Assembly (NCBI GenBank): GCA_963556145.1
Contig: OY744463.1
Coordinates: 2,418,001-2,482,000 of the forward strand
DNA from: Hygrocybe punicea
Lineage: Eukaryota > Basidiomycota > Agaricomycetes > Agaricales > Hygrophoraceae
Reading direction: 5' to 3'
DNA: 64,000 nt
Part shown: positions 30,777 to 64,000 of the stretch, piece by piece
Position numbering within the stretch: position 1 is the first letter of the stretch
How the letters are laid out: each line of letters begins with the position of its first letter
The notes under the pieces: generated by a model
The model's database searches: none
What the model was told of the DNA's origin: nothing
The model's input: only the letters and a program-made list of their open reading frames with translations
Made by a program: the position numbers and the translations under genes

Positions 30777-30778
30777 AC

Positions 30779-31273
30779 TGCAAGCGCTTGAAAAAGAAGT
30801 GCATATTGGCGGCAAGGGGCGCGATTGGAGGGGTGAAAAAGACCGCACGAAAGGGAAAGGAGAAGGCTCGTAACCCGGCCGCGAAACGCAAGATCATCCC
30901 GATGGTTGAAATCCCGGTCAAGCGCAAGGTACCAGTCAAGGGGCCATCAAGTAGTAAGCGGACGCTCTCGGAGGTGGAACCCAACTCGGAATCAGAGGCG
31001 ACGGATCCGAAAGAACTCGAGGTCCCGAGGCACGTACTGAAATGGCCCCGGATAAGTGAAGACTTCGAGGAAAACCTCAACTATATGTGGCAGGTCGCCA
31101 ACAAGTCCCAGAACGACATCGCGATGGCCGCGGAACAACTCGCCACATACACGGCCGCGGTCAATTCTCGTCTCACAACGATAACCCAACAACTCAACCG
31201 GATCCGCGCCAACCACGCACTCCTCATTACGCAACTCGAAATTGTGGGCGTCAAAACCCAGGGAACAAAGTGA
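30779..31273 (+). CDS. Antisense ORF of element B (zinc-cluster-like, 5'-truncated)
   Basis: Directly after LTR3 the frame reads CKRLKKKC, the second half of a Zn2Cys6-like cluster, then a Lys/Arg-rich linker (ARKGKEKARNPAAKRKIIP), a Ser/Glu stretch, and a helical C-terminus rich in heptads (AMAAEQLATYTAAVNSRLTT, QQLNRIRANHALLITQLEIV). It is antisense to B's pol and converges on it, at the same place as the better preserved antisense gene of element A (47261-48657), with which it shares the order Cys cluster, basic region, acidic region and coiled coil. The first cysteines are missing because LTR3 abuts the fifth Cys codon. It is probably non-functional in this copy. Confidence 0.55.
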   Translation, partial: CKRLKKKCILAARGAIGGVKKTARKGKEKARNPAAKRKIIPMVEIPVKRKVPVKGPSSSKRTLSEVEPNSESEATDPKELEVPRHVLKWPRISEDFEENLNYMWQVANKSQNDIAMAAEQLATYTAAVNSRLTTITQQLNRIRANHALLITQLEIVGVKTQGTK

Positions 31274-31867: not shown

Positions 31868-32661
31868 TGTAGAGGGTCCTCGACCCTCTGAGGCCGTAAC
31901 ATCGATATCTAGCGAATCCGCTCGAACCCGACGTCTCTAGCAATCTACGTTCGAACCCGACGCAACCCGACGCAACCCGATGCATACCGACTAGCACGGC
32001 CGCTCACGTACCTGGTCGGTCTATCTCCTAAACTCGCGGAACTTCAAATATCAAAGATAGATCTCATCGGACTGGGATCCCGACATCGGACTTGCCTTAT
32101 TCACGCCTAGCGTCTCCCTTATGGGGATATAGTAAAGTATTTTGCATCTTTTACGGTTTTTATATCTTCCACCCATTTTCCCTGTCATCGTCGCCTTGCA
32201 ACGCTCTTCCTACTTCCCCATTTTTATTCTCCTTTGTTTCCTCTCATCGGCCGAGGACTCTCGTCCGAATCTAGGTACAGAAATTTGTAGTATAAAAACG
32301 GTGCCCAAGCGCCGTCTCAAAATAAGAAACCAGTTCCCCCGTTTTCCTCTCTCTGAGAATTAGTCTCTCAGTAAAATCCATCGCACATACTACTCGTCAG
32401 TTTCCTCGACGCTCTCCCCGTCCTTCTACCGTCTTAATCTCTACGTTTCTCGTCACCCGACACCCGACCCGCCGTACCTGACATCGTCGGCTTCATCGGC
32501 TTCGATTGGTCTCGATAGATTTCAGTAGTTTACTCGGCGGCTTCTTACCTTTTATATCCTATTATCTTACTGAAGCTTGTTAGACTATTCCTAGTCACTT
32601 CTACGCTGACCCCACAGGCCTAGGATTATTATTCCGCAGCCACCCTGACCTCGCCTTTACA
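31868..32661 (+). repeat. Element A 5' LTR (LTR1)
   Basis: 794 bp, TG...CA. It starts with a perfect dyad AGAGGGTC-CTC-GACCCTCT. TATAAAA is at 32,291-32,297, followed at once by a 7-bp stem (32,298-32,304 with 32,309-32,315). It is 29 bp longer than the 3' copy: a 19-bp segment near 32,070 and one 10-bp unit of a cgcaacccga repeat near 31,975 are missing in the 3' copy. Confidence 0.9.
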
Positions 32662-37063: not shown

Positions 37064-37973
37064 TGTAGATGCGGGTTCTTGGTGGCTTCGGAACTATATA
37101 AAGAAATAATATAAAGATCCTAACCTGTGGGTGTCAGCGTAGAAGTGACTGGATAAATCAGTGTCGGGAATAGAAGTAAAAAAGAAGGGAATGTTAGTAA
37201 AAGTAAAGCCGCCGCGTAAAACTGGACTAATAATGACGAAGCCGGCGATGAACGGAGTGAAAACGGACAAATAATAAAGAACCCGACGATGCCGACGATG
37301 TCGGGTACGGCGGGTCGGGTCGGGTCGGGTCGGAAACAATGAACGAATATACGGAAACAACGATAAAGACGACGAAGTGAACTATAAAAAGCTAAGGATC
37401 TACGTGGACGAGCATTTGAAGGGATTTAAAGGTGATTCTGACTAAAGGGAAACGGGGACTAAGGGTATCTTATTTTGTACGGTCGTCGGGGACCGTTTTT
37501 ATAGTACAGGAAACAGTAATCTACTTTCGGATGTGTCTACTTCGGCCGATGGTAAGCTACAAAGAAAGGTTGAAATGGGGATGTGGAAAGGGGGGTTGCA
37601 AAGCAACGAAGACAGGAAATGGAGGGGAAAACGAATATGCAAGGAAAAGATCTAGAAAGTCCTACATATCTCCGAAAGGACGATGGGATGCATAAATAAA
37701 GTAAATCCGAAGTCGGGGATTGAGTCCGAAGAGATCCATCTCCTGGAATTGGAACTCCGAGGCGTTTGAGGCTGCCGGATTTGGTCTGAGAGCGGCTGTG
37801 ACGAAGCGGCATACGTCGGGTTATGTCGGTCACGTCTGGTCACGTCACGTCACGTCACGTCGGGTTGCGTCGGGTTACGTCGGGTTCGAATGCAAGTCGA
37901 ATGGCGGCATCGGGTTGGTCCGGATTCGTGATATATTGATGATACGGACTCAGAGGGACGTCGACCCTCTACA
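37064..37973 (-). repeat. LTR2 copy b (3' LTR of E, inversion junction)
   Basis: 910 bp. It differs from copy c at a T/A (37,077), an A6/A5 run (about 37,180), a T/C (37,234) and a C/T (37,607). The first three lie in its 3' part and are absent from copy a as well. Confidence 0.9.
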
Positions 37974-38524
37974 TCTCCAGGGTACTTTAAATAAAGACCA
38001 TCCCTGGTCGATACTACGTGGACTCGGGACTCGGATGCGTGAGATGAGGCCGACGTGGTGGTCGTGGAATTGGGTTCGACAGGACGAGGTGGGTTGTGGA
38101 CAATGCGAAGGGGGAGAGCGGGTGGTGACTAGTGGAGAGTCGGAGGGCGGAGAACAAAGGCGGGTGATGCCGGTGTCCGGAAATACATAGAAAAGAAACT
38201 ATAGTGACAATATAACCAAGCGGAAATGAAGGAAACAGCGGAAAGCTATAAGGGTGGGACAAATATGCAGCGGAAATGCAAAATAGATAAAAGGGAATAA
38301 ATGCCGGTGATCGGAAAGGAAGGGACGCAATAGAAATCAAGTCGGGATAAAACTAAACGTGACATAGGATTGGGGGCGGGTGACGGAGACGAGTAAGGCA
38401 GGAGCGGAAACGAAATAAAACACAAGCGGATGACAAAGACGATCTAGGCGGGTCGAGTTAGGGTCGGCGGCTTTGGTGGCTGTGTCAACGGGTGGCGGAA
38501 ACGGTGGCGTAGGGGTAGACATGA

Positions 38525-38735
38525 TATGACGACGGTGGTTGTTCAATACGATATGACGAAAACGGAGGTTCGATAGACGACGACGGAGGTTCGATATACG
38601 ATGGCGGAGGTTCGATATACGATATGACAAAAACGGAGGTTCGATGGACGACGACGGAGGTTCAATATACGATGGCGGAGGTTCGATAGACGGCGGCGGA
38701 GGTTCGATAGACGATGGCGGAGGTTCAATATGTCA
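38525..38735. repeat. Short tandem repeat in element E (about 20 bp)
   Basis: Variants of ggaggttcgatagacgacg repeat about ten times. On the minus strand (sense for E) they encode NLRRRLS/VYRTS-type repeats in different frames. Confidence 0.8.
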
Positions 38736-39503
38736 ATACTAATATGGGGGCGATAATCAACGGATGTGAAATCAGCCTCATACTAGGCGGTTCAGCACCG
38801 GCTTGGACCCGTGGGGAAGCATTCTCCCCTATGGAACTGAAATATAAAGTCGGGTGGGTTGGGAATCGAAGCCGAGACAGGGAACGTTGTGTCTGGGTCG
38901 AAATGGTGGCGGAAATGGTGGGTCATGGAAAGCGGAGAGCGATGTCAACAGGTGGAATGCGGGTGCGTGAGCGGATGAGTCGGGTGCGTGGGGAATGAGT
39001 GAAGCGGTGCGTCGGGTTCGTAAGCGGGTGCGGCGGGTTCGTAAACGGGTTTGCTGAGTGCGACGGATTCATAAGCGGGTGTGTCGGGTACGTCGGGTGT
39101 ATTATGCGGGTGTCGGGTGTGTCGGGAACAAGTGTATTTCTTTTTATCTTTCTTTTATCTCTGACGTTTTTCTTTCTTTTTATTTATTTAATCTATCTAT
39201 GTATATATTTCTTATGCCGATGGACGGTGACGGGTTTTCGTAGGGTCGGGTTCGGTGGGTATGGGGGTGCGAAGGTGGCGGGTATGGGATGTGAAACCGG
39301 AACCGGAACCAGATGCTCGAATCGAGCACTGGTGCTCGAATTGAGCCGGAACCGGAACCGGATGCCGCGGAATCGTTGGGAACGAGTCCGGGTTCGTAGT
39401 CGGGTGCTGTGATGCAGGTCGCGGATCCGGATCCGGAACCCGGTGTAGCGGATTGGTCGAAAACGGGTTGTCGGGTGTGGCGGTATGGCATAGGGCCACG
39501 TAG

Positions 39504-39950
39504 GGAGACGGGGCGGACGACGTGAGCGGATGAGACGGAACGTGGTTGCGAGGCGTGGATCATGGTTGCATGGGGTTGTTCGACGCTGCGGGTTGTCGAG
39601 GGAAGCGGGTAACGGGTGGTCGAGGTCGGCGGTACGGGATAGGGCAATGTTGGGAAACGGAGGCGGATGACGTGGGCGGATACGAAGGGACGTGGTGTTG
39701 CATGACGTGGATCGTGGTTGCGTGAGGTCGTTCGAGGGTGCTGGAGGCCGGGGGAGCGGGTGACGGGTGATCGAGGCTGGGGTATGGTGTAGGGAGATGT
39801 TGGAGACGGGGGCGGACGGCGTGGGCGGGAAGATGGATTGGGGTGATACGGGTGGCGTCTTCGTGATGTTTTCGTGGCGGATAGTTGCGTGGGGATTTGA
39901 CAATGGTCCGTCGGGTCGTGGAACGGGTTTGGGCGGCCGGTGGTCACGGT
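39504..39950. repeat. 149-bp tandem repeat in element E, three copies
   Basis: Starts at 39,504, 39,653 and 39,802 (gagacggggcggacgacgtg and variants), 149 bp apart each time, with about 75-80% similarity by eye. Confidence 0.75.
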
Positions 39951-40366
39951 TTCACGGGCGTAACCCAACGGGGGCTTCGTTTGGGCTCGCGAAGGGACTT
40001 GAGGGACGTCGTGGGGTTGGTCGAGGGCGTAGGTGATCGCAGGGGAGTGGACGAGGACGGGGACGGCTGGGGGTGAATGGAGGTCGACGGGGGGTGACGT
40101 GGCCGCTTGCGTGGGACGACGAGGGACGAGAGCGGAGTCGTTTGGGACAGGTGAGGGCCATCCAGAGGTGCGGGGGCGTGAACGAGAACGTGGGGGTGGT
40201 TGTACGCGGCGGTCGTTGGCCTCGGATGGTGGGTATGATGTCGAGTGACGTGGCATGTTGTTGATGGCTCGAGGGCGGCGAGGACTACTTGTACGGCGTC
40301 ACGACGGATGATGTGTGGTCCTGGGATGCGGTACGAGGCAGCGGGTGGCTCAACGGGGGCGTGAGC

Positions 40367-40840
40367 GGCCGGGGATGTCGAGTACGGGGGGCACGAAGAA
40401 GGATGACGTGGTGACGCGTGAGGGCTCGATGACGGCGAGGATGGCTCGTGAGGGCTCGCGAGTGGTGTCGTGGGGCTGTAGGAAACGGTACGAGGCAACG
40501 GGAAGGTCCAACGAGGGCGTAAGCGGCCGGGATGTCGAATAGGCGGGGGCACGAAGCGGGGTGACGTGGGACACTGTGGGAGCGTCGATAACGGCGAAGA
40601 CGACTCGTGTGGGCTCGCGAAGGGCGCTGTGGGGACTCGGAGAGCCATACGAGGCTGCGTGGGGGTAGCAACGAGGGCGTGAGCGGCCGGGTATGTCGAA
40701 TAGGCGGGTGCATGAGCTGGGATGACGTGGCGACGCGTTGGGGACTCGATAATGGCGGAGACGGCTCGTAAGACCTTGCGAATGGCGTCGTGAGGCTGTA
40801 GCACGGTGTTGAGGGCTCGATCGCGGCCGGGTTGCTCGCA
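40367..40840. repeat. About 159-bp tandem repeat in element E, three copies
   Basis: The block ggccggg.atgtcga recurs at 40,367, 40,525 and 40,685. Each copy also contains gatgacgtgg, ggctcg and gaggc.gcg blocks in the same order. Confidence 0.75.
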
Positions 40841-41474
40841 CAGACTCGTGAAAGGCGCTGACGTGTTTTGCTGGTAACTTCGCGGGCTCAGACGATGGGG
40901 GCGTGTCAGGGCTTGTATTCGGTGACAAGTGCGAGTTCTTAGACGCGAGCGGCTGGGGGTGCACAGGCTAAACCCATTGCACGGCGCTCCGTCTGTTCCG
41001 AGTCGTGTTTGACGCGCGAGTGCTGTTGGGCGGGTCGTTGGGGCTTTCCGGTCGCGGTTTTTCGACGGTTATCGGTGGGGAGTGGGATTCCGAGCGTGTT
41101 GGGGATCTATAAACGAGCGTGGATGGTGGATGTGACGAGGTTCGAGTCGTTGAGCGACAAACGAGGGCGTATCGGGTCGTGGCTGTGCAAGGTTCCTAAA
41201 GCGGTAAACGGGCGTCGGGTCGGCCGCACAAGAGCGGGTTAGAAGTTGTACGTGAAACTAGACAGTTGTGGTCGTAACAGAAGAGGAGATAGTAATAAAA
41301 TCAAACCCTAATGATGGTGTGATAGTTGGAAATTGGATGTCGGAGTGTTGGGTGTCGAATGTAAAGAAGTCGGGTAATGGGTGTCGGATGTGTAGAGTGC
41401 TGCGGCAGGGCTTGTTGCGAGATGACGAAAGGAAATGAAGTGCTGTGGAATGAATGAATGATGACACTGAATTA

Positions 41475-41492
41475 TCCTCGCGGTGGGCTCCA
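41475..41492 (-). other. Primer binding site of element E
   Basis: Reverse complement of the same 18-mer seen in A and B, 2 nt from the LTR. It fixes 41,495-42,403 as the 5' LTR of E. Confidence 0.8.
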
Positions 41493-41494
41493 GA

Positions 41495-42403
41495 TGTAGA
41501 TGCGGGTACTTGGTGGCTTCGGAACTATATAAAGAAATAATATAAAGATCCTAACCTGTGGGTGTCAGCGTAGAAGTGACTGGATAAATCAGTGTCGGGA
41601 ATAGAAGTAAAAAGAAGGGAATGTTAGTAAAAGTAAAGCCGCCGCGTAAAACTGGACTAATAACGACGAAGCCGGCGATGAACGGAGTGAAAACGGACAA
41701 ATAATAAAGAACCCGACGATGCCGACGATGTCGGGTACGGCGGGTCGGGTCGGGTCGGGTCGGAAACAATGAACGAATATACGGAAACAACGATAAAGAC
41801 GACGAAGTGAACTATAAAAAGCTAAGGATCTACGTGGACGAGCATTTGAAGGGATTTAAAGGTGATTCTGACTAAAGGGAAACGGGGACTAAGGGTATCT
41901 TATTTTGTACGGTCGTCGGGGACCGTTTTTATAGTACAGGAAACAGTAATCTACTTTCGGATGTGTCTACTTCGGCCGATGGTAAGCTACAAAGAAAGGT
42001 TGAAATGGGGATGTGGAAAGGGGGGTTGCAAAGCAATGAAGACAGGAAATGGAGGGGAAAACGAATATGCAAGGAAAAGATCTAGAAAGTCCTACATATC
42101 TCCGAAAGGACGATGGGATGCATAAATAAAGTAAATCCGAAGTCGGGGATTGAGTCCGAAGAGATCCATCTCCTGGAATTGGAACTCCGAGGCGTTTGAG
42201 GCTGCCGGATTTGGTCTGAGAGCGGCTGTGACGAAGCGGCATACGTCGGGTTATGTCGGTCACGTCTGGTCACGTCACGTCACGTCACGTCGGGTTGCGT
42301 CGGGTTACGTCGGGTTCGAATGCAAGTCGAATGGCGGCATCGGGTTGGTCCGGATTCGTGATATATTGATGATACGGACTCAGAGGGACGTCGACCCTCT
42401 ACA
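41495..42403 (-). repeat. LTR2 copy c (5' LTR of E)
   Basis: 909 bp. The outer flank ccga (42,404-42,407) matches, after inversion, the flank of copy a (35,829-35,832, reverse complement ccga), giving the 4-bp target duplication of E. Confidence 0.9.
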
Positions 42404-42617
42404 CCGATCCACATTCCCACCTTACCGCACGACCCGTGGGTCCATCGCAATATCCCAATCCCACCCGGCATCCTTAACGAAGTCATCGGCATCATCAAAG
42501 ACAAAATTAACGCCGGTACCTATGAACCCTCAAATTCGTCATACCGCTCCCGCTGGTTCTGCGTTTTGAAAAAGGATGGGAAGTCTCTTCGAATCGTCCA
42601 CGATCTACAGCCGCTTA
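42404..42617 (+). pseudogene. Element A pol, start of RT
   Basis: Reads IHIPTLPHDPWVHRNIPIPP, INAGTYEPSNSSYRSRWFCV and KSLRIVHDLQPL, the N-terminal fingers of a Ty3-type reverse transcriptase. It is broken at 42,617 by element F and continues at 44,288 without loss: LQPL is followed by NAVTIRDPAVPP. Confidence 0.88.
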
Positions 42618-43280: not shown

Positions 43281-43494
43281 ACGGTATCATGTGACCATTA
43301 CACGAAGGTTTCTTCACCAACAACAACAATGCAAGGCCAATGAACGCGACACAATGTCGCGTTCATGGACACAGGTAAGTTTTACCATTTATCTTAACTT
43401 TACTAATATTATCTGTTACAGGAAACTCAACCGCGACCACATCGCGAGCACACCACCGCGGCACAAAATGGATCCCAACGCCAACGCGATGCCA

Positions 43495-44035
43495 ACGGAC
43501 GCGGGACAGCCGCAACACCACCACCACCACCACCACCACCACCACCACCACCAGCGGCGGCGGCAACTGCAACAGCAATGGCAACGGCAACCAGGCAACG
43601 ACGACGGCAACAGCCAGCAGCAGCGCCGGCAGCAACGGCAGCAGCAGCAGTGACAGCAGCAGCGGCAACAGCAGCAGCAGCAGCAGCAACGCCGGCAGCA
43701 GCAATGCCAGCAACAGCAGCAGCTGCTGCTGCTGCATCAAGCCATCCAACGCGGGACAGCGGCAACACCAGCGGCGGCAACAACAACAGCAACGACAACC
43801 ACGATGGCCAGCAGCAGCAGCAGCAATGCCAGCAGCAGCAGCAACAGCAGCAGCAGCAATGCCGGCAGCAGCAGCAACAGCGGCAGCAGCAACGGCAACA
43901 GCAGCAGCGACAGCAGCAACGGCAACGGCCACAACAGCAGCAGCAGTGGCAGCAGCAACGGCCACGGCAGCAGCAGCAGCGCCGGCAGCGGCAGCAACAG
44001 CAGCAGTGGCAGCAGCGCCGGACGGCTCCCCCGCA
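43495..44035. repeat. CAG/CAA/CAC triplet-repeat tract
   Basis: More than 500 bp of interrupted CAG, CAA and CAC triplets, open in several frames on both strands (poly-Q, poly-A, poly-S, poly-H). Frames open in all directions here reflect composition, not coding. If the preceding intron is real, one plus frame (after KLNRDHIASTPPRHKMDPNA) could encode a His/Gln-rich peptide. Confidence 0.75.
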
Positions 44036-44287
44036 GCCCATCTACCTCGCGAAGTGCAGCGCCGTATCAATTGATACGTGCCTGCCATTCGCGAGGAGAA
44101 CAGAGCTCACGGGGTGAGCCCACCTCGGTCCGGGGTTCAGACCGCGTCTGAACCCAGACCGAACGCGGACAGACGGTTCGATGCCGTCTGGGTCCAGGTT
44201 TAACCATGCGCCAAACCGGACCCCAAGTTCAGTTCGCGGTTCCGCCAAAAAGGGTCGGAACCGGACCGAACTGAACTTCGGCAACAC

Positions 44288-47056
44288 TACAGCCGCTTAA
44301 CGCCGTCACTATCCGCGATCCCGCCGTACCGCCCATGACCAAGCACTTGGCCGAGGCCTTTGGCGGCCACTCTTGTTATGCTTCCTTCGACCTCTTTGTC
44401 TCTTTCGACCAACGCCTCATCCACCCCTCGTCTCGGGACTACATGACCTTTCAGTCTCCACTCGGAACGCTTCGACTTACGCGGATTGCTATGGGATACA
44501 CAAATTCCCCGCAGATCCTACACGGTGACTCCACGTACATCCTCCATGACGAAATCCCTCATCTTGCCGTTCCATATATGGACGATATTCCCGTCAAAGG
44601 GCCTCCAACCCGTTACAAGCAACCCGACGGTACCTACGAGACTATACCCGAGAACCCGGCAATCCGACATTTCATTTGGGAGCACTTCCAAGGTGTCAAC
44701 CGCGTCATCCAGCGTTTCCGCTATGTCGGCGGTACCTTCAACGGCAAAAAACTCGAGTTGTGTTGACCCTCAGTCATCATTGTTGGCCACCGATGCACAT
44801 ACGAAGGAAGAGTAGCTGACGACTCCAAAGTACAGAAGATTTGCGATTGGCCACTGCCGACCAACCTCACCGAAGTTCGCGCCTTTCTCGGCATCTGCGG
44901 CGTCTTGCGTATTTTTATCAAGGACTTCTCGCTCCACTCCCGACCCCTCGTCCGTCTTACCCGCAAAGGTATACCCTTCAAATTTGGTGAAGAAGAAGAG
45001 ACCGCCGTCGACTACCTCAAAAACGCCGTCATTACGTCGCCAGCGCTGCGTGCTATCGACTACACGCGTGAATGGGAAGTGATTCTCGCCGTTGATTCAT
45101 CCGTCCTTGGAGTCGGCTTCGTTCTCATGCAAATCCGCGCTGACGGAAAACGTTATCCGAATCGCTTTGGTTCAATATCGTGCGAACGAACGCGAAGCCC
45201 AATACTCCCAGTCCAAGCTCGAACTCTACGGCCTCTTCAGGGCCCTCCACGCCTACCGAATCTTCATCATCGGCGTCCGCAACCTCACTGTTGAAGTCGA
45301 TGCGAAGTACATAAAAGGGATGCTCAACAACCCCGACATTCAGCCCAATGCAACGATCAACCGATGGATAGCCGGCGTGCTCTTATTTGACTTTAGACTC
45401 GTTCACATACCCGCTTCCGCACACGGTGCACCCGACGGACTCTCCCGACGTCCCCGCGCTGCAGAAGACCCCGAGGAGATCAACGATTCCGACGATTGGC
45501 TCAACCACTCCTACGGTTTCTTTATGGAAGTCGTCAACTACCGACCCGTCCCCATACCGTCTAAGCCGATTGCCGTATGCGGCTGCTGCCGTGCCACAGC
45601 CAACCAACTCCAAGAATTGCCCGCCGTCCTCGTCTACACAAATCAGGAAGCCGTTTCTGACATACCGCGATCCGATAAAGCCCGCGCGGCCGACGCTCGT
45701 CTTGCTCTCGTCGAGATCTGGTTACGAGATCTAACCCGACCCGCGAACTTCACGGACGAAGAATACCGTCTGTTCTTACGATACGCCCTTGAATTCTTCG
45801 TCACCGATAACAAGCTTTGGCGCAAAGACCGTCACGGAAAACACAAACTTGTCATACCGCCCGACCGCCGGCTTCAGTTACTCAAAGACGCTCACGACTC
45901 TCTCGGCCACAAAGGTATATTCTCTGTCCGCGCTCGGCTACTCGATCGTTTCTGGTGGCCGCACCTCGACCACGACGTTAAGTGGTACGTCCAGTCTTGC
46001 CATCAGTGCCAAGTACGGCAAATGCGTTATCATCACATTCCGCCCACCGTCGCTACACCGGCCTCACTATTTCGTAAAGCGTATGTCGACACAATGTTTA
46101 TGCCACGATCCGGCGGCTATCGATACATCGTCCAAGCCCGTTGCTCCCTGTCCGCCTACCCTGAGTTCCGCATGTTACGCCGCGAGACCGGCTCCACCAT
46201 CGGCACGTTCTTGTTCGAAGACATCTTATGCCGTTGGGGCGCTCTCGAAGAAATTGTTACCGACAACGGCAAGCCGTTCGTAGAAGCGCTCGACTATCTC
46301 GCCTCCCGCTACGGTATCCGCCACATCCGCATTTCGCCCTATAACTCACAAGCGAATGGACCCGTTGAGCGTCGCCACCTAGATGTCCGGGAGGCCATTA
46401 TGAAAAGTTGTGACGGAGATGAAAAGAAATGGCACACCGTAACCCACTCTGTATTTTGGGCCGAACGGGTCACGACACACAAAAGCCTCGGATACTCATC
46501 CTACTACATCGCACACGGAGTAGAACCGCTGTTTCCATTCGATTTTGCCGAAGCTACGTACATGGTTCCGACGCAAGATACGATGTCTACGACCGACCTC
46601 ATAGTCATCCGCGCCCGACAACTTCGTAAACGAGAAGCCGACCTCGATCGGGTCAAAGAAAAGCTTACCAAATCTCGGCTCGCGTCCGCCCGGCAATTCG
46701 AGCAGAAATATGCCAACACGATCAAAGTTTACGACTTCGAACCCGGTAACCTCGTTCTCGTCCGAAATTCATGTATCGAAATGTCTCTCGATCGTAAAGC
46801 AAAACCGCGGTACTTTGGACCCATGGTTGTTGTCAGGAAAACAGAAGGCGGATCCTACATACTCGCCGAACTCGACGGTGCGGTTTCTAAATCTCGATTT
46901 GCCACTTTCCGAGTCGTACCCTACCACGCCCGCTCAAAAATATCGATACCGTTGGATGACTTCTTACAATACCCCGATGCCGACGATACCGATTCAAACG
47001 ATCTTGATGATCCGACGTACCCGCCCTCTATAGACTCCTCACCCGACGACGATTAA
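44288..47056 (+). pseudogene. pol: Element A pol: RT, RNase H, integrase (two lesions)
   Basis: Contains the RT core with YMDD (about 44,575-44,586), then an in-frame TGA at 44764-44766 (LC*PS; B has LCRPS). RNase H starts at WEVILAVDSSVLGVGFVLMQ. An extra C at 45,183 shifts the frame (B reads WNDRESRYSQSK). From 45,184 on the frame is open to 47,056: end of RNase H (VEVDAKYIKGMLNNPD), integrase zinc finger (HDSLGHKG...CHQCQ), catalytic core (VDTMFMPRSGG, TDNGKPF, PVERRHLDVREAI) and a C-terminal module ending in SPDDD. The element makes no full Pol from this copy. Confidence 0.9.
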
Positions 47057-47260: not shown

Positions 47261-48657
47261 TTACAGGCGGCCGGTCTCGTAATCCCGCTTCAACATTGCC
47301 AACCTTGAGGTCGACCGTTCGAGATCGACGCGAAGCCGCTGGAACTCTTGACCGAAGTGGACGAGGTGACGGTTGACGTTGGTGCCCAGGGCTCCCAGCT
47401 CCTCCGTAAGGACCGCTAGCCGCGCCGACACTTGCTCGTAATTCTCCATCGTCAAAACGAACGGGTTCGCTGCCGAGGCTGTCCTAAGCCTTTTCGTCGG
47501 CCGCTCTTCCTCCGACTCCTCCTCGTCTTCGTCATCGTCCTCGACCGACTCCACGTCCTCGACCCGCGGTTTGCTCGTTGAGGCCCAGGCAGGCCTACTG
47601 CGGATGGGCTTTGTCGTGAATGACAACGGCTTCCTCGTGCCGACCGCGACCTCTTTGCCCTTTCCGGTATCCACCTTGCGCCGACCCCCGCCCGTCCGGT
47701 GTGTAGTGTTAGTACATCTCTTCTTCAGCCTCCGGCATCATTCGCACACGTAGCCCGTGACGCCTCGACACGCCTCTTGCGCCTTGACGCAGTTGGTGCA
47801 GGGTTGTAGGGGAAACGGCCCGGTGAACTGTTACCAGGATCAGTGACTAAAGAACAAATGAACCGACACAAGAACTCACCGTCGTACCAGCCAAGTCTCC
47901 GGTCTCTATGCCCGGCGTATCTACGTCTTCTACATCGGCCGGTGTCTCTGGTGCCGGGTCGACGGGGCCTTCCTCTGGCTCAACTGCGGCTTCACCCTCC
48001 GGAATCGACTCAGTCCTTGGTTCACCCGCGACCGATGCGTTTGCTTCAGCTCGCCGTTCTTCGCTGAGCCGCCGCCGATACGCGGCTCCATCCCTTTCAA
48101 CCCGGTCCGCTTCTTGATTCCAGTGCTGCTCGTGTTGTTCTATTCTAAGCCGCTCCCGCCTTTCCTCTGCCGCCTTTCGCCTTTTCTCCGCCTCCGCTCG
48201 TGCATTTGCCTCTGCCATCCGTCTGGCCTCCTCTTCCCGCGTAGCCGCTTCTTCATCCGCCCGCCATCTGGCTTCTTCCTGTTCCTGCCTCTCCCGGTCT
48301 GCCGCTTCTTTCAGCCACTCTTCGACATCGTTGGCGTACGATTGGCGGTCGGCCCATAACGGTGGTGTTACTGGCCTCGTACCACCAGCTCGGAGTTCCA
48401 CGACGATTCCATTATAAGCACGCTGGCGGGACGACATGAGCTATCTTAGGACACGCGTAGTCAATAAGGAAACTCACCAGCGCCTTCTTGCGGCCGCTTA
48501 ACCATTGTTGGGCCATCCCCTCGTTGCTGTCCACCATCGTTACGAGGTCGTCGCTATGAAACACGGTGACTGCGTTGACGGCCTCTTCGTAGTCCGCCCG
48601 GACATCGGGTTCGATGCTTTCGACGAAGGCGAGGAAGTTGTCGTAGACTTGGGACAT
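47261..48657 (-). CDS. Antisense zinc-cluster-like gene of element A (contains one stop)
   Basis: Three phase-0 exons: 48657-48478 (MSQVYDNFLAFVESIEPDVR...SGRKKAL), 48440-47880 (acidic/basic coiled coil, EARWRADEEAATREEEARRM) and 47827-47261. The introns are GTGAGT...ATAG (37 nt) and GTGAGT...ACAG (52 nt, with a CTGAT branch). Exon 3 starts FTGPFPLQ and carries Cys spacing C-x2-C-x6-C-x7-C-x2-C-x6-C (CTNC...CRRLKKRC), the spacing of a Zn2Cys6 cluster, followed by a basic region, an Asp/Glu run and a heptad-rich C-terminus. A TGA (47740-47738) sits between the fourth and fifth Cys, where an Arg codon CGA would fit. It lies between pol and the 3' LTR, antisense to pol. Role unknown; a DNA-binding regulator is inference. 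Confidence 0.6.
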
Positions 48658-48815
48658 TGTGAACGTGTGATGATGTAGAGGAAAGGTCGGATCAACAACG
48701 AGAATTTTTTTATTTTTTTTTACTTTGCCGTTGTTTGGCCGCTCACGTGATTGGCCACATTCGCGACCCGCATTCGGAGACCCCATATTCTCGACCACGG
48801 ATGGTCTCTATTAGA

Positions 48816-48828: not shown

Positions 48829-49593
48829 TGTAGAGGGTCCTCGACCCTCTGAGGCCGTAACATCGATATCTAGCGAATCCGCTCGAACCCGACGTCTCTA
48901 GCAATCTACATTCGAACCCGACGCAACCCGACGCATACCGACTAGCACGGCCGCTCACGTACCTGGTCGGTCTATCTCCTAAACTCGCGGAACTTCAAAT
49001 ATCAAAGATAGATCTCATCGGACTTGCCTTATTCACGCCTAGCGTCTCCCTTATGGGGATATAGTAAAGTATTTTGCATCTTTTACGGTTTTTATATCTT
49101 CCACCCATTTTCCCTGTCATCGTCGCCTTGCAATGCTCTTCCTACTTCCCCATTTTTATTCTCCTTTGTTTCCTCTCATCGGCCGAGGACTCTCGTCCGA
49201 ATCTAGGTACAGAAATTTGTAGTATAAAAACGGTGCCCAAGCGCCGTCTCAAAATAAGAAACCAGTTCCCCCGTTTTCCTCTCTCTGAGAATTAGTCTCT
49301 CAGTAAAATCCATCGCACATACTACTCGTCGGTTTCCTCGACGCTCTCCCCGTCCTTCTACCGTCTTAATCTCTACGTTTCTCGTCACCTGACACCCGAC
49401 CCGCCGTACCCGACATCGTCGGCTTCGTTGGCTTCGATCGGTCTTGATAGATTTCAGTAGTTTACTCGGCGGCTTCTTACCTTTTATATCCTATTATCTT
49501 ACTGAAGCTTGTTAGACTATTCCTAGTCACTTCTACGCTGACCCCACAGGCCTAGGATTATTATTCCGCAGCCACCCCGACCTTGCCTTTACA
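48829..49593 (+). repeat. Element A 3' LTR (LTR1)
   Basis: 765 bp, TGTAGAGGGTCC...CTTTACA, with TATAAAA at 49,223 and the same adjacent hairpin. Apart from the two short deletions and a handful of substitutions it equals the 5' LTR. Confidence 0.9.
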
Positions 49594-52500
49594 GCGGCTT
49601 TGACTTCCGGTCTAGAGACATCTCAACCCATGAATTCCGGATGAGTACCAGATCGCCGGGTCGCAAGTCGTAGCTTTTGATCATATTCGCAAATTTCTCT
49701 TCAAACTGTCGAACGGATTCGAACCGTGACTTGAGTACACGATCCCTAATGGCGTCAAGGTCCTCTGGCCATTTCCATAGTTGTCGGGCACGGAGAGCAA
49801 TAAGTTCCGGCGTCGTCATAGCACTTTGCCGTGGAACCAAATATGTTGCTTCAGCTAAGTCGAACGGAAAGAGGGGCTCGACACCGTGAGCCATATAATA
49901 TGACGAATACCCGAGGTCCCGGTGGGTTGTAACCCGTTCTGCCCAAAATACCGAGTGTACAACGGTGTGCCAACTCCGCTCGTCGCCATCGCATGTTTTC
50001 ATTATTGCTTCGCGAACATCCCGATGACGACGTTCGACGGGTCCATTAGCCTGTGAGTTGTAGGGGGAAATCCGGATGTGTCGGATACCAAAACGGTCCG
50101 CGAGGTAATTGAGTGCGTCGACGAACGGAGGGCCGTTATCCGTGACAATTTCTTCCAAAGCACCCCACCGGCACAGTATTTCTTCGAAAATAAAGGTGCC
50201 TATGGTAGAACCCATTTCCCGGCGCAGCATATGGAACTCCGGATACGAAGTAAGGGAGCATCGAGCTTGTACAATGTAGCGGAAACCGCCGGATCGAGGC
50301 ATGTGCATGGTATCGATGTATACTTTACGAAATAATGAAGCCGGAGTCGCAACCGTAGGCGGAATATGGTGGTAGCGCATTTGCCGGATTTGACACTGGT
50401 GACACGACCGGACATACCACTTGACGTCGTGATTCAAGAATGGCCACCAAAACCGATCCAAAAGATGAGTTCGAACAGAGAACACCCCCTTGTGTCCGAG
50501 GGAGTCGTGCACCTCGCGGATAAGTCGAAGCCGTTTACCAACGGGAACCACGACCTTATGTTTTCCGTGAGCGTCCTTCCTCCAAAGTTTATCATCGATT
50601 AGGAAGAACTCGAGCGTGTATCTCATGAATTGGCGGAATTTCTGGTCGGAAAATCCAGGTGGATGCTCTAGTGTTCGAAGGAATTGTTCGACAACGCGAA
50701 CCCGATCGTCAGCGGCAACAGCATTTGCTGTCCGAGGGATATCAGCATCGGTTTGTTCCACAGAGTACACGGCTACCGGGTTTGTCGCGTAACTTCGGTT
50801 CTGGCAGGCCGTACATAAAACACGGGTGGATGAGTCACATCGGGGTGATCTGTAGTTGACCACTTCCATATAAAAACCATATGACCGGTCAATCCATTCT
50901 TCAAAATCATCGGTGTCGGGTGGATCGGCTTCAGTTCGTGGCCGGCGGGAGAGCCTGTCCGCGGCGGAGTGGTCAGAAGCCAGTACGTGGACTAGTGTGA
51001 AATTGAAAAGTAAAATCCCGGCGATCCACCGATTAATTGTGGCGTTTGGCTGAATATCTGGGTTGTTCAACATCCCCTTGATGTATTTAGCGTCGACCTC
51101 GACGGTCAAATTACGGACACCAATGATAAACACCCGGAAGTAGCGTAAGGCGTGGAAAAGGCCAAACAATTCCAGCTTAGACTGGGAATAGCGTGACTCG
51201 CGATCATTCCATGTGATGGACCCAAAGCGGCTCAGGTAGCGCTTTCCATCATCGCGGATCTGCATGAGGATGAACCCGACACCTATAACCGATGAGTCCA
51301 TGGCCAATATAACTTCCCAATCTTTTTCGTAATCGATGGCGCGCAAAGCGGGTGACGTGACAACGGCATGTTTCAAGAAGTCGAATGCGGATAGTTCCGC
51401 GTCCTGGAAATCAAAGGGTATTCCTTTCCGGGTGAGATAAACCAAGGGTCGAGCGTACAAAGCAAAGCCCTTGATGAAAATCCTCATAAGTCCGCAAGTA
51501 CCGAGGAAGGCGCGTATATCAGTCGCATTCCTAGGCAAAGGCCAATCGCAAATCTTCTGAACCTTCCCGGCATCGGGGACATGACCTTCGTAAGTGCACG
51601 TATGACCAACAACAACCACAGATGGGCGGCAAAGCTCCAGCTTCTTGCCGTTGAACGTTCCGCCAATGTACCGGAAACGTTGTAGGACTCGATTAACACC
51701 CTGAAAGTATTCCCACACAAATCGTCGTATTCCATCGTTTTCCAGTATAGTCTCGTAGCCGCCATTGGGTAATTCGTAACGGGTTGGGGGGCCTTTCAGA
51801 GGAATATCATCCATAAATGGGATTGTTACGTGCGGGATTTCGTCGCGTAAAATATATGTGGTATCCCCGTGCATGATCTGGGGTGAATTCGTATATCCCA
51901 TTGCGATGCGTGTAAGACGGAGTGTACCAAGTGGGGATTGAAAGGTCATGTAGTCGCGCGAATCTGGATGCACAAGCCGCTGATCGAAAGATACGAAGAG
52001 ATCTAAGGCCCTGTAACACGAATGTCCGCCAAAGGACTCGGCGAGTTGTTCCGTCATTGGGGGCACCGCGGGGTCCCGGATAGTGACAGCGTTGAGCAGC
52101 TGTAGGTCGTGCACTAAGCACAAGCTAAGACCGTCCTTCTTAATAACACAAAACCATCGGGAACGGTAAGAAGAATTGGAGGGCTTGTAGGTACCAGCGG
52201 CAATCTTATCTTTTATAATCCGGACGACTTCTGCCAGAATTCCGGGCGGTATAGGGATATTTTTGTGAACCCAAGGCGTGTGGGGAACGGTCGGGATATG
52301 GATTGGCGGAAAGTAATCGGTATTGAATTGACCTTTCTCGGATTCGTTCCAAGCGAACGCGGCTTCTTGTTCTTTGATAAGAAAATGGCCAAGTTTTTCC
52401 TCTTCCAGCCATAGAAAGTCATCCGGGTTAATGTTGTATTTGTTGTGGCGTTCCTGGGTGTAGCGGGTTCCGGGCGTAAAATCGGGTGGACGTGTCGGAA

Positions 52501-52993
52501 GCGTGGGTAAGTCGGCAAGTGGATCACCAGTGATGTTACGAATAATCCTATACTTGTCCGGAAGAGTGGTGGAAATGGGACGAACTCTGTTCGCGACTTT
52601 CTTGTACTTTTTCCGGACAACGACTCCTTTTAAATCGCGTTTGGGCGGGTCGGCGTTAACCTGGAATACATTATGTACAGGTTTAGTTTCTGAGGATACT
52701 TTTACAAGATGAGAATAGAGAGATGACAATATAGATACCGCGTCCGAGGTTGAAGACGGCGGTTTTGAGGAGAAATCGAGCTCGAAAGAGAAACAAAATT
52801 CTTTAGAAGTGGAATCGGTAGATGATGAATCAAAATGAAAATAGAGGGACGGGTCAAAAGGCGGGTCGGAATCCGAAGACGGAATAGAATCGGGAAGGGT
52901 ATCATGAGAACAAATTGGATCGCTTGCGAGTTCCGGCTTATCATTCGTAGGCACGACATCTCCTCGGAATGTGTCCAATTCCTCGATAATCAA
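49594..52993 (-). CDS. pol: Element B pol (RT, RNase H, integrase), cut by element A
   Basis: Open for about 1,133 codons from the gag/pol junction to DRKSKP at the LTR1 border. It has an N-terminal acidic linker, KGVVVRKKYKKVANRVRPIS, RT with FMDD (about 51,807-51,818), RNase H (WEVILAMDSSVIGVGFILMQ) and an integrase with HHCC (HDSLGHKG...CHQCQ) and DDE residues (YIDTMHMPRSG, TDNGPPF, GPVERRHRDV). No stop or shift is seen, so pol was intact when A inserted. The missing C-terminus lies at 31,604-31,867. No AUG is needed at the start if the -1 shift operates. Confidence 0.92.
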
Positions 52994-56584: not shown

Positions 56585-56585
56585 A

Positions 56586-57941
56586 CGCATTTCCGGTGTC
56601 TTGTTTGACAACGGCCATCTAACGGATAAGCAATGGAACACATACTTCGCCAACAGATTCGACTCAGACCTTCGTCTACGTATTGAAGAACGCCTCCATT
56701 ACCTTCTTCCCTGTCATTACCACGACGATCCATACCCAGTTGATATTTTCCACGACGCCACGTTGTTTCTCCTTTCCGGTTACCGTTCCGTTCTGGAATC
56801 CGTTGTCACTGCAGCCCCCGTTGCCATTTCTAGTCCCAATTCCGGTCTTGCTCCCGTACCTGTCGCAGTCATTTCGCCTCTGGAACAGATCCCGTCCTCG
56901 ATCCTGTCCTCGATCCCGCCCACTGTCGTTCGTTTTGTCCCCCACGTTCATTCCGGTCCTTCGTATACTCCGTCCCCGTCATCGTGTTCCCCGTCCCCGT
57001 CCATTCCGGTGCCCGTCGAGACCGTTATTTGTTTACAGGTTTTGTTGTCCAGTCCCGTGTCGCCCCCGTCCGATCCCATTCTCGATTTATCGATGCCAGT
57101 CACCAATTTATCCAATTTGTTTCCTATTTCGTCCCTGTCGTCTCCAGTTTCGTCCCCTCCGGTTTCCGTCCACGAACTCGTACCGGACCCACTCCCATTG
57201 TCCTCGGATTCTCCAGAAATAGACATTCCATCCCCGATATTGCCGCCATATTGTCCTCCGTCACCATCTATCGAGATTCCGTCGACTTTGGTTGAGTATT
57301 CCGTACCCGTTCCCATTCCGGACTCCATTCCACCCCTTTTATTTGATTTCAATTCCGGTTCCAATTCCGTTATGTCGACCCCTTTGTTCCCAGTTCCCCT
57401 CGTCGTTCCTGCTCCCGTATCGTCTCCGGTTCCCTCCTCGCCCACTTGGGGCACTTTGTCATTTCCGCCCGCTTGGGGCACCCCGTCGTTTTTAGACCCG
57501 TCACATGGCACACCCGTTATATGGAATCGTGTTGGTGTCGGCACTCCGGTTCTCAAATTTTTATTGTTCCTCGTTTCTGTCTTCATTCTACTTTGTCATT
57601 GCATTCTGGACCTCCGCCCCCTCGACTCCTTGCTCAAATATTTGCAAGAAGTTCTCCGCCTCCTCTCGTCGTTCCGCCTCCAACCTTCTTTCAGAAACTC
57701 TTGTGGGGATATAGACCGGTTTCCGCCTCCTATTTTTGCGTTTTCGTCTTCCGTTCCGGTTTCCGTTTCCGCTCCCATTTCTCATTTATTTATATTTTCG
57801 TTTCCATTTCTTGTTTCCTTTGTTTCCCGCTCGTTCCGGACCCATTTCGTTTCCGTTGTATTCCGGTCCCGTCCTCCTCCTCGACCCCCAGATTCCAGTT
57901 ATCTTATCTCGTCGTTCCGTTTCCCTCTTTTCCGTTTATAG
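56586..57941 (+). pseudogene. Gag fragment of another Ty3-type element (element D)
   Basis: Reads RISGVLFDNGHLTDKQWNTY, RIEERLHYLLPCHYHDDPYP and IFHDATLFLLSGYRS, which aligns with A gag RISGFLLDKGRISPRECNIA...QKPNHFHSDPYDFQDFHNCAHFLLAG. After this the frame is open but becomes a Pro/Ser/Val-rich repeat (VPVPxSIP), and no zinc knuckle, protease or RT follows. It is a truncated or non-autonomous relative joined to the LTR3 end. The remainder to about 58,060 is pyrimidine-rich with no gene. Confidence 0.65.
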
Positions 57942-58169
57942 TTTTATTATGTACTCTATTTTTCTTTATGTACATTGTCCCGCATTCCGTTTTCCCTTTC
58001 CGTCCATTCCCTTTTATTCCCTTCTCCCTTCGTCGAGTTTGGTGTTGATTAGGTCGAGTTGACCCAGGATATGGGCCTGGTTCGCGCGTAGTCGATTTAG
58101 CTCCTTTGTCCAACGGGTCAGTAGACCCAGTCGTTTTGGTTAACCCGATCGCAGATATAGTTGCAAAAG

Positions 58170-60050
58170 GTAGGTACACATAGCGCAGTTGCTTGCTGGG
58201 GGGGTAGGTTAACCCAAAAGACAGCTCTTGCTGGGGAAATGTGGTGTGGTAGGTTGACCCAGGTACAGATCTTGCTGGTCAAGGGCGCCTGGGTGGGTCA
58301 ACCCGGTGTCAGCTCTGCCATGGGGTAGGTTAACCCAGGGCAGCTATTCCAGGATGGATGGGTTGACCCAGGTCCAGCTGTTCAAGCCATGTGGGTTTAC
58401 CTGGCTTCAGTTATTGCTGCAGCACTGGGTTGACCCTAGACCAGTTCTTGCTGCACACTGGGGTTGACCTGGACCCAGCTGTTGCTGTGGCATTGGGTTG
58501 ACCAGGGCCCAGCACATGCTGGAGGGGGTGACTGGGGTCCAGCGATTGCTGGGTTGACCTGGCCCCAGCTCTGGCTGCAGGATTGGGTTGACCTGGCCCC
58601 AGCTCTTGCTGCAGGATTGGGTCAACCCAGGTCCAGCTCTTGTTGCAGCATTGGGTCAACCCAGGTCCAGCTCTTACTGCTGCACCGGGTGCACCCAGGG
58701 CCAGCTTTTGCTGCAGCACTGGGTCAACCCAGGGCCAGCTATTGCTGGAGCATTGGGTTGACCTGGTCCCAGCTCTTGCTGCAGCACTGGGTTGACCCAG
58801 GTCCAGCACCTCCTGCAGGGCTTGGGTTGACCAGGGTCCAGCTATTGATGCAGCACTTGGTTGACCCAGGTCCAGCAATTACTGCGCCATTGGGTTGACC
58901 TGGTCCCAGCTCTTGCTGCAGCACTGGGTTGACCGGGGTCCAGCTATTGATGCAGCACTTGGTTGACCCAGGTCCAGCACCTCCTGCAGGGCTTGGGTTG
59001 ACCAGGGTCCAGCTATTGATGCAGCACTTGGTTGACCCAGGTCCAGCAATTACTGCGCCATTGGGTTGACCTGGTCCCAGCTCTTGCTGCAGCACTGGGT
59101 TGACCGAGGTCCAGCTATTGATGCAGCACTTGGTTGACCCAGGTCCAGCAATTACTGCGCCATTGGGTTGACCTGGTCCCAGCTCTTGCTGCAGCACTGG
59201 GTTGACCCGGGTCCAGCACTTCCTGCAGGGCTTGGGTTGACCGGGGTCCAGCTATTGCTGCAGCATTTGGTTGACCCTGGCCCAGCACTTGCTGCAGGGT
59301 AGGTTGACCTGGTCCCAGCTCTTGCTGCAGCACTGGGTTGACCGAGGTCCAGCACTTCCTGCAGGGCTTTGGTTGACCGGGGTCCAGCTATTTCTGCAGC
59401 ACTGGGTTGACCCTGGCCCAGCACTTGCTGCGGGGTAGGTTGACTGGGGTCCAGCTATTGCTGCAGGGCTTGGGTTGACCAGGGTCCAGCTATTGCTGCT
59501 CCACTTAGTGTATTGCACGGGTACGGGTAAACCCGCGGGTTTTGCCACGGGTACGGGTACGGGTAGGGTACGGCTACGGATTCCTGGACCCGCCAGCTTT
59601 TTTTTAAGCCCTGGATCATCCAAAATGGTCAAGTAATGAGCTAGATATGCTCAAAATACCTCATTGGAGTATTTTGAGCATATCTAGCTCAATACTTGAC
59701 CGTTTTGGACAATCCGGGGCTTAAAATGATGGGTAAAACCCGCGGGTTTTGTACCCGCAGGTACAACGGGTGTGGGTATGGGTACAGCCAAAAATACCCG
59801 GGGGTTACCCGTGCAATACACTAGCTGCACTAGGTAGACCCTGGCCCAGTACTTGCTGCAGGATAGGTTGACCGGGGTCCAGCTATTGCTGCAGCACTTG
59901 GTTGACCCAGGTCCAGCAATTACTGCAGCATTGGGTTGACCTGGTCCCAGCTCTCGCTGCAGCACTGGGTTGACCAGGGTCCAGCTATTGCTGCAGGGTA
60001 GGTTGACTGGGGTCCAGCCCATTCTGTAGCGTTGGTTTGATCCTGGACCC
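58170..60050. repeat. 34-bp minisatellite
   Basis: The unit ttgacc.ggtcccagctcttgctgcagcactggg repeats every 34-35 bp (for example 58,861, 58,895, 58,929, 58,963, 58,998), about 50 copies, with irregular units at 58,170-58,440. Larger blocks of three to five units are also duplicated. Minus-strand frames through it (PGSTQCC-, GPGQPNAA-type) are repeat artefacts. It is interrupted at 59,506-59,823 by a MITE. The same unit in reverse orientation fills 63,590-63,955. Confidence 0.9.
59506..59823. mobile_element. Fold-back MITE, TA target duplication
   Basis: TA|GTGTATTGCACGGGTA...TACCCGTGCAATACAC|TA, 314 bp between the TAs. The whole element folds back: outer TIRs, mirrored gggtaaacccgcgggttttg parts, and a perfect 23-bp inverted repeat at the centre (59,637-59,659 with 59,669-59,691, 9-nt loop). 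No ORF. A second copy starts at 63,960 and runs off the window. Confidence 0.85.
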
Positions 60051-63959: not shown

Positions 63960-64000
63960 GTGTATTGCACGGGTAACCCCCGGGTATTTTTGGCTGTACC
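63960..64000. mobile_element. Second copy of the fold-back MITE, cut by window end
   Basis: TA then GTGTATTGCACGGGTAACCC, identical to the inverted end of the MITE at 59,506-59,823. It sits at the mirrored position in the right arm. Confidence 0.8.

What the first reader, a model, noticed from the sequence alone, without database searches (positions are those of the whole stretch)
47261..48657. Spliced antisense zinc-cluster gene carried by a Ty3-type retrotransposon
Between pol and the 3' LTR, on the opposite strand, three phase-0 exons encode a protein with Cys spacing 2-6-7-2-6 like a fungal Zn2Cys6 cluster, then basic, acidic and coiled-coil parts. Because its introns are antisense to the genomic RNA they survive retrotransposition. 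Element B carries the matching tail (CKRLKKKC, basic, acidic, coiled coil) at the same place, so the gene belongs to the element lineage and was not picked up once. A DNA-binding accessory protein could bias integration or control element or host transcription. Antisense ORFs are known in some plant Ty3 elements; I do not know a described fungal zinc-cluster case.
Basis: partly seen in the sequence, partly recalled or inferred. Interest (0 to 1): 0.85.

Follow-up and report, generated by a model that had tools for sequence, protein, structure and literature searches.

The report
Antisense zinc-cluster gene in fungal retrotransposons
Families of jumping genes in this fungus carry, on their opposite strand, a spliced and conserved gene for a probable DNA-binding protein, kept even in family members that have lost their replication enzymes, which suggests the protein controls the elements that encode it.

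Summary
The window copy (47261-48657, minus strand) has an in-frame TGA inside the cysteine cluster, so it is broken; and intron 1 most likely ends at 48423. The gene itself is real. In the 92-Mb genome 150 copies of its last exon were scored, 132 without a stop in that exon. In 50 copies the splice sites are kept wherever present (48 of 48, 50 of 50) and pN/pS is 0.17/0.42/0.24 for the three exons; pol gives 0.20, upstream non-coding DNA about 1. Three element families share the architecture at 25-40% identity: six invariant cysteines (C2C6C7C2C6C), basic and acidic stretches, a C-terminal coiled coil, two phase-0 introns at the same places, and an upstream CACGTG. JGI contig proteins match each family. 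New here: family C has LTR, a gag-like gene and this gene but no pol in a 4.3-kb unit. The cluster resembles fungal Zn2Cys6 but scores just under the Pfam cut-off, and its basic half is the second one. Best reading: a family-specific DNA-binding regulator of the elements, a fungal counterpart of plant antisense aORFs. DNA binding and transcription are untested.

The parts
47261..48657 (-). antisense gene, whole (3 exons, ATG to TAA); this copy carries one in-frame stop
48478..48657 (-). exon 1 (60 codons)
   Evidence: pN/pS 0.17 over 50 copies (2 lack it, 1 is shorter), no stops
48423..48477 (-). intron 1, GTGAGT..AG, 55 nt
   Evidence: donor and acceptor kept in 48 of 48 copies (2 of 50 lack the region); homologous intron in B (60 nt) and C (49 nt)
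47880..48422 (-). exon 2, charged, Glu/Arg/Ala-rich
   Evidence: pN/pS 0.42; 543 or 534 nt in 48 of 50, two truncated; 6 of 50 have a stop
47828..47879 (-). intron 2, GTGAGT..AG, 52 nt
   Evidence: 50 of 50 copies keep GTGAGT and AG; homologous in B (45 nt) and C (52 nt, CTAAC branch-like site)
47261..47827 (-). exon 3: Cys cluster, basic, acidic and coiled-coil parts, stop codon
   Evidence: pN/pS 0.24 over 50 copies, 564 coding nt in 50 of 50
47714..47800 (-). cysteine cluster C2C6C7C2C6C
   Evidence: six Cys invariant in 18 of 18 A/B/C sequences
47738..47740 (-). in-frame TGA inside the cluster of this copy
47276..47464 (-). C-terminal long helix (coiled coil)
   Evidence: AlphaFold helix 122-184 of exon 3, pLDDT about 88-98 (on L026)
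48744..48749 (.). CACGTG upstream of the antisense ATG
   Evidence: within 160 nt of the ATG in A 47/49, B 12/14, C 9/10 genes with exon 1 found
48793..48806 (.). GACCA-N4-TGGTC palindrome 23 nt inside the 3' LTR boundary
   Evidence: 75 of 90 loci; the 15 misses are L001-L008 (PF00172 loci) and 7 element loci; 348 genome matches to a longer form against 0 for the reversed control
48829..49593 (+). 3' LTR of element A; its first 205 nt hold three CGGGTT on the gene strand
31868..32661 (+). 5' LTR of element A; GCGG at both element ends
   Evidence: 94.6% to the 3' LTR
44287..47056 (+). 3' part of element A pol (RNase H and integrase by Pfam from 45092 on)
30779..31273 (+). remnant of the element-B antisense gene (end of the cluster to the stop), cut by an LTR-like stretch at 30158-30780
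49589..52993 (-). element B pol, interrupted by the insertion of element A
58017..58121 (-). tail of a family-C antisense gene beside a family-C gag piece (56585-58121)

Best explanation
It is an accessory gene of a lineage of fungal Ty3-type elements. Shown by sequence: the gene lies antisense between the last sense gene and the 3' LTR, has two intron-like gaps with conserved splice sites, is constrained as a protein, and recurs in three element families, one of which has no pol. Inferred: it is transcribed towards pol from a promoter between the 3' LTR and its ATG (conserved CACGTG), spliced, and translated into a protein of about 426-475 residues. That protein dimerises by its C-terminal coiled coil and binds DNA with a Zn2Cys6-like cluster. 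Inferred with less certainty: it recognises sites in or beside its own family's LTRs (repeated CGG-cored hexamers in U3 are candidates) and turns those elements on, or keeps them from being silenced. Each family needs its own version, which would explain why pol-less elements that can borrow pol still keep gag and this gene.
For: Copy number and intactness: 150 scored of 481 candidates, 18 of the 150 with a stop in exon 3 (my count of its table). Purifying selection in the gene frame at pol strength; B pair L041/L054 dN 0.13, dS 1.56, ratio 0.08; C exon 3 0.22 against a C gag segment 0.24. Conserved introns in A, B and C. Opposite-strand pol beside the gene in 50 of 50 A loci and 17 of 19 B loci; no pol within 1.5 kb in 11 of 11 C loci, and gag in 10 of 11 with a B query, the eleventh (L063) with a C query. 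C tandem unit of 4334 nt with no pol. Six invariant Cys; PF00172 matched by 16 of 18, best E 0.00052. Coiled-coil helix. CACGTG in 68 of 73 genes with exon 1 found. Repeated CGGGTT in U3: P 0.002 and 0.013 in two B copies, 0.016 and 0.18 in two A copies; CGGAAT P 0.032 in one C copy.
Against: No transcript, splice-junction or protein data. Cluster below the Pfam cut-off and permuted; the best PDB match by sequence, the AlcR zinc cluster, has E 0.3 and an unrelated growth factor follows at 0.31. AlphaFold weak over the cluster (pLDDT about 66-72 in the 188-aa model, mean 53.8 for the 50-aa model); no fold match. The CGG repeats were found after the fact; two of seven stretches gave P above 0.4 (L054, L090), one control stretch (A LTR end, 0.16) is no worse than the window's own U3 (0.18), and copies are not independent. 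The palindrome by the LTR also occurs in a neighbouring element (37055-42406) with no detected gag, pol or antisense gene, so it is not tied to this gene. A nuclear role is inferred only from composition.
Confidence: 0.5

Rival explanations
1. The protein is a structural or replication helper, for example a nucleic-acid chaperone, an RNA- or genome-packaging factor, or a tether that carries the integration complex to chosen chromatin, instead of a transcription or silencing regulator.
For: Kept together with gag in pol-less family C at similar constraint (0.22 against 0.24); Cys/basic and coiled-coil make-up also fits nucleic-acid binding without sequence choice.
Against: Encoded antisense with its own putative promoter and introns, an odd layout for a particle protein; a Zn2Cys6-like cluster usually reads sequence (recalled).
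Confidence: 0.27
2. The locus acts as an antisense RNA (control of sense RNA by pairing or small RNAs) and the open frame is secondary.
For: Antisense transcripts of retroelements can act as RNA; the plant aORF review raises the same option (PMC7264820, passages).
Against: Codon-level constraint in the gene frame at pol strength, and amino-acid conservation at high synonymous distance.
Confidence: 0.08
3. A host-directed counter-defence protein, for example a blocker of methylation or heterochromatin machinery, that works in trans without binding element DNA.
For: Differences among A copies are transition-rich (ts/tv 4.2) and 55% of transitions are of CpG/TpG/CpA type although 35% of C+G lies in CpG, as if copies are methylated; fungal DNA transposons carry TET/JBP genes thought to serve escape from silencing (PMC12730594, abstract).
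Against: A function shared in trans would let pol-less C elements lose the gene, yet they keep it.
Confidence: 0.13
4. A chance open frame or a captured host gene fragment drifting without function.
For: The window copy itself is broken; no family match above a curated cut-off.
Against: pN/pS 0.17-0.42, three families, conserved introns, homologues on JGI contigs.
Confidence: 0.02

Closest known systems
[quoted passage not shown] PMC7264820 and PMC11963269, passages)
   Same: Same place and orientation; some products nuclear or predicted to bind DNA; Grande gene23 has its own upstream promoter.
   Different: Retand proteins carry the TRP28 domain; the terms zinc, intron and fungi do not occur in the main text of either paper. 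Here the host is a fungus, the gene has two conserved introns and a Zn2Cys6-like cluster, and it persists in pol-less elements.
Fungal Zn2Cys6 binuclear cluster proteins (PF00172; Gal4, AlcR)
   Same: Cys spacing, basic stretch in the cluster, coiled coil downstream.
   Different: Score below the Pfam cut-off; basic loop in the second half; cluster about residue 248 of 426 instead of near the N terminus (recalled for Gal4); long low-confidence stretch before the coiled coil.
VANC sequence-specific anti-silencing proteins of Arabidopsis VANDAL transposons (PMC10398659 abstract; PMC5735166 listing)
   Same: Proposed logic: an element-encoded protein that acts on non-coding repeats of its own family.
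   Different: Plant element of another class (recalled) and another protein family; no anti-silencing shown here.
Retroviral antisense regulators such as HTLV-1 HBZ (mentioned in PMC11963269, passages)
   Same: Regulator encoded antisense, with a nuclear role.
   Different: HBZ is a bZIP-type protein of an animal retrovirus (recalled); no sequence relation tested.
Gag-only non-autonomous LTR elements (TR-GAG; search listing; definition recalled)
   Same: Family C has LTRs and a gag-like gene but no pol.
   Different: Family C also carries the antisense gene at similar constraint to gag.

Membership tests
Fungal Zn2Cys6 cluster (PF00172) | Six Cys spaced C-x2-C-x6-C-x5-12-C-x2-C-x6-8-C | tested here: met
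   18 of 18 sequences from three families; spacing rule recalled
Fungal Zn2Cys6 cluster (PF00172) | Score above Pfam's gathering cut-off (21 bits) | tested here: not met
   19.8 bits, E 0.00087 for the first sequence; best of 18 E 0.00052 (bits not shown); 16 of 18 match at E up to 10; 11.3 bits in the whole protein
Fungal Zn2Cys6 cluster (PF00172) | Basic residues between Cys2 and Cys3 | tested here: not met
   the basic run lies between Cys5 and Cys6; in the first sequence that half aligns to profile positions 2-14
Fungal Zn2Cys6 cluster (PF00172) | Two-helix, two-zinc fold | tested here: inconclusive
Fungal Zn2Cys6 cluster (PF00172) | Zinc and CGG-type DNA binding | not testable with these tools
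   needs protein; CGG-cored repeats in U3 are only a lead
Antisense aORF (aORF-3R) of Ty3/Gypsy elements | Between pol and 3' LTR, opposite to gag-pol | tested here: met
   A 50 of 50, B 17 of 19 loci with opposite-strand pol; family C has a gag-like gene instead
Antisense aORF (aORF-3R) of Ty3/Gypsy elements | Present in most copies of the element | tested here: inconclusive
   elements were found by the gene, so the share of elements without it was not measured
Antisense aORF (aORF-3R) of Ty3/Gypsy elements | Antisense transcription from its own promoter | not testable with these tools
   only a conserved CACGTG upstream
Retand-type TRP28 protein (PF04195) | TRP28 domain | tested here: not met
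   no PF04195 among the Pfam matches to the three spliced proteins at E up to 1

The most novel reading that the evidence does not exclude
Ty3-type elements of mushroom-like fungi evolved their own family-specific transcription or anti-silencing factors: spliced antisense genes whose protein reads CGG-cored repeats in the LTR of its own family. Self-recognition is so strict that non-autonomous elements which borrow pol must still carry gag and their own copy of the factor. The antisense placement is what lets a retrotransposon keep an intron-bearing gene through reverse transcription.
Probability: 0.33. Interest if true: 0.85.

Novelty: new variant of a known kind. Interest (0 to 1): 0.7.

Why it matters
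Antisense accessory genes of LTR retrotransposons have been described in plants, with functions not yet determined (PMC7264820, passages). This is a fungal case with a recognisable type of DNA-binding domain, introns and strong selection. A hundred and more copies, three diverged families and a pol-less derivative make the question of what such genes do testable: one can ask which DNA each family's protein binds and whether specificity follows the LTR. If the self-specific regulator reading is right, it would be a retrotransposon counterpart of VANC-type anti-silencing and would explain why non-autonomous elements keep a non-structural gene. Fungal genome annotations may also count such copies as host genes (inference).

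Tried and rejected
Chance open frame: rejected by pN/pS and by the upstream non-coding control. CGG/CCG density over whole LTRs: A not above shuffles (31 against 27.7; 32 against 29.7), C 26 against 16.1 and 14 against 10.0, while pol, a control, also exceeds (116 against 93.0), so density alone is no evidence. AlphaFold of exon 3 and of the cluster: coiled coil clear, cluster inconclusive; PDB second look compared one chain and returned nothing. Full-length profile search of the protein database: none; its length limits leave out single-exon frames, and the exon-3 profile then found four. NCBIfam: only chance-level matches. Host species not identified. Host origin of the gene not found: the result tables are capped at 150 rows and filled by element copies.

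Full report
WHAT IS THERE. The window is G000:C3:2418001-2482000 of a 92.2-Mb, 42-contig genome. PF00172 scores over its cut-off in 18 places in that genome and in none of 14 control genomes, which fits a fungus; the species was not identified. Element A, on the plus strand, has LTRs at 31868-32661 and 48829-49593 (94.6% identical) with GCGG at both ends. Its pol has RNase H and integrase domains in Ty3 order (order recalled). It was inserted into element B (minus strand), whose pol stops at 49589 and resumes below about 31873. Between the end of A's pol (47056) and its 3' LTR the minus strand reads exon 1 (48657-48478), intron 1 (48477-48423), exon 2 (48422-47880), intron 2 (47879-47828) and exon 3 (47827-47261).

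CORRECTIONS. The window copy is broken: TGA at 47740-47738, inside the cysteine cluster. Copies without this stop exist.

COPIES. With exon 3 as query, 150 of 481 candidates were scored and listed, at 91-100% identity; by my count of the table 18 of the 150 have an in-frame stop in exon 3. The sample therefore leans to well-kept copies. Exon 3 has 564 coding nt in 50 of 50; exon 1 has 180 nt in 47 of 50 (one 169, two absent); exon 2 has 543 or 534 nt in 48 of 50 (two truncated), the difference being an in-frame 9-nt gap. Stops: exon 1 0 of 50, exon 2 6 of 50, exon 3 1 of 50.

SELECTION. pN/pS in the gene frame is 0.17, 0.42 and 0.24 for exons 1-3. The other two gene-strand frames give 0.64-5.2, and the non-coding stretch upstream (with 72 nt of the LTR) 0.94-1.12 on the gene strand. 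The short stretch downstream of the stop is erratic (0.40-2.93). One opposite-strand frame is low in each exon (0.25, 0.45, 0.31) but holds 2.0-5.1 stops per copy; its wobble positions coincide with those of the gene. Pol in the same 30 loci gives 0.20, and the gene in those 30 loci 0.18, 0.39 and 0.20. Family C exon 3 (10 copies) gives 0.22 at mean pS 0.37; family B exon 3 (12 copies) 0.39 (other gene-strand frames 0.70 and 0.85); the B pair L041/L054 gives dN/dS 0.08 at dS 1.56.

THREE FAMILIES. Spliced proteins of A, B and C align end to end, B and C being 33% and 25% identical to A; B and C are 40% identical in exon 3. Introns sit at the same places, all in phase 0, with different sequences and lengths (A 55/52, B 60/45, C 49/52 nt), and C has CTAAC branch-like sites. 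One C copy (L059) has lost its intron-1 acceptor. Outside this genome an exon-3 profile found four proteins on JGI contigs of 1.4-3.4 kb: P0001 is B-like (73-76% to the better B copies), P0002 and P0003 are C-like (84% and 75%), and P0004 is A-like (65%, a fragment without the cluster). So each of the three lineages has a relative elsewhere; whether by common descent or transfer was not tested.

CARRIERS. Pol lies on the opposite strand about 206-248 nt from the stop in 50 of 50 A loci, and on the opposite strand in 17 of 19 B loci; no pol was found beside 11 of 11 C loci (and at a laxer threshold). C loci instead have a gag-like gene related to B gag (39-47% over the matched part) in 10 of 11; the eleventh, L063, matched a C gag segment. 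Two of the 11 C loci (L060, L062) are identical. The C gag frame has no Pfam match, so 'gag' rests on similarity to B's. A C tandem unit (L090) repeats every 4334 nt and holds one LTR-like stretch of about 600 nt, a 473-codon gag frame and the antisense gene, with no pol. So C is non-autonomous yet keeps this gene at about the same constraint as its gag (0.22 against 0.24). This is the strongest hint to function: pol can be borrowed, gag and this gene apparently cannot.

PROTEIN. The six cysteines are invariant in 18 of 18 aligned sequences. PF00172 is matched by 16 of these 18, more than any other Pfam family, and is the top family for the first one, but below its cut-off; the half that matches the profile's start is the second half, where the basic residues are. 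The best PDB match by sequence is the AlcR zinc cluster at E 0.3, not significant, with Epigen next at 0.31. AlphaFold gives a confident 63-residue C-terminal helix and only weak helices at the cluster; the PDB second look had one chain to compare and returned nothing. The whole proteins have no other Pfam match of note. I therefore call it Zn2Cys6-like and do not file it as a member.

REGULATORY SEQUENCE. Upstream of the ATG CACGTG occurs within 160 nt in 47 of 49 A, 12 of 14 B and 9 of 10 C genes in which exon 1 was found (1 not found in each family), at 88-94, 91-92 and 103-115 nt; the chance per gene is about 0.04, though copies are related. Just inside the 3' LTR lies GACCA-N4-TGGTC, found in 75 of 90 loci; the 15 misses are L001-L008 (the PF00172 loci) and 7 element loci. 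The longer form GACCANNGATGGTCTCTAT has 348 genome matches against 0 for the reversed control. A form of it with one mismatch also lies beside the LTR of the 37055-42406 element, where I found no gag, pol or antisense gene, so it is probably a cis signal of the elements at large. In U3, CGGGTT occurs 3-5 times in four of five A and B stretches (2 in L054) and CGGAAT 4 times in one C LTR and 2 in the other; P for the commonest hexamer by shuffling was 0.18, 0.016 (A), 0.002, 0.013, 0.63 (B), 0.46 and 0.032 (C); three control stretches gave 0.998, 0.16 and 0.33. This is a lead only.

DECAY. Differences between A copies are transition-rich (ts/tv 4.2) and 55% of transitions are of the CpG/TpG/CpA type, while 35% of C+G lies in CpG. 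This fits methylation-linked decay of inserted copies (inference).

LITERATURE. Plant Ty3 elements carry antisense ORFs at the same place: Grande, RIRE2 and Retand (PMC7264820, PMC11963269; passages read). In two fungal surveys that I opened by keyword the terms antisense and zinc do not occur (PMC3248453, PMC3411680; passages). Eight searches of the open-licence library showed no title or abstract start about an antisense zinc-cluster gene in a fungal retrotransposon; five of the lists were cut (20 of 70, 20 of 52, 20 of 48, 15 of 55, 8 of 10), and subscription papers and Repbase reports are not covered. VANC proteins and TET-bearing fungal transposons are functional parallels (PMC10398659 and PMC12730594, abstracts).

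VERDICT. A real, selected, intron-bearing antisense gene family of fungal Ty3-type elements and of a pol-less derivative. The regulator reading is the best supported, at about even odds, and sequence-specific self-recognition is the most novel reading that is not excluded.

Noticed in passing
L090; G000:C35:1851876-1869766; G000:C2:6030652-6042873: Family C units (LTR-like + gag-like + antisense gene, no pol) occur as a head-to-tail run of five at exactly 4334-nt spacing on C35; three more lie close together on C2.
   Followed up: partly
34917-42406: A further LTR element (LTRs 37055-37973 and 41493-42406, no detected gag, pol or antisense gene) plus an inverted extra LTR (34917-35830) interrupt element A; a piece of pol at 35836-36393 is inverted relative to A's pol, as if flipped between inverted LTRs.
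   Followed up: partly
43363-44117: Low-complexity CAG/GCA-type repeat (poly-Gln/poly-Ala/poly-Cys frames) lies within the pol region of element A, between pol pieces ending at 42634 and starting at 44287.
   Followed up: no
48793-48806 and 37996-38009: GACCA-N4-TGGTC palindrome about 20 nt inside the 3' LTR, shared by several element families including one without detected coding genes; its sense strand could form a 5-bp hairpin near the plus-strand priming site.
   Followed up: partly
58361-60067 and 63714-64000: 34-nt tandem repeat array with an inverted 287-nt exact copy at the window end.
   Followed up: no
28267-28690: Direct repeat with a 110-nt period, copies about 94% alike.
   Followed up: no
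L026, L041, L058 (spliced): The N-terminal 57-60 residues (exon 1) and the start of exon 2 form a second conserved block in A, B and C with no Pfam match; its role is unknown.
   Followed up: no
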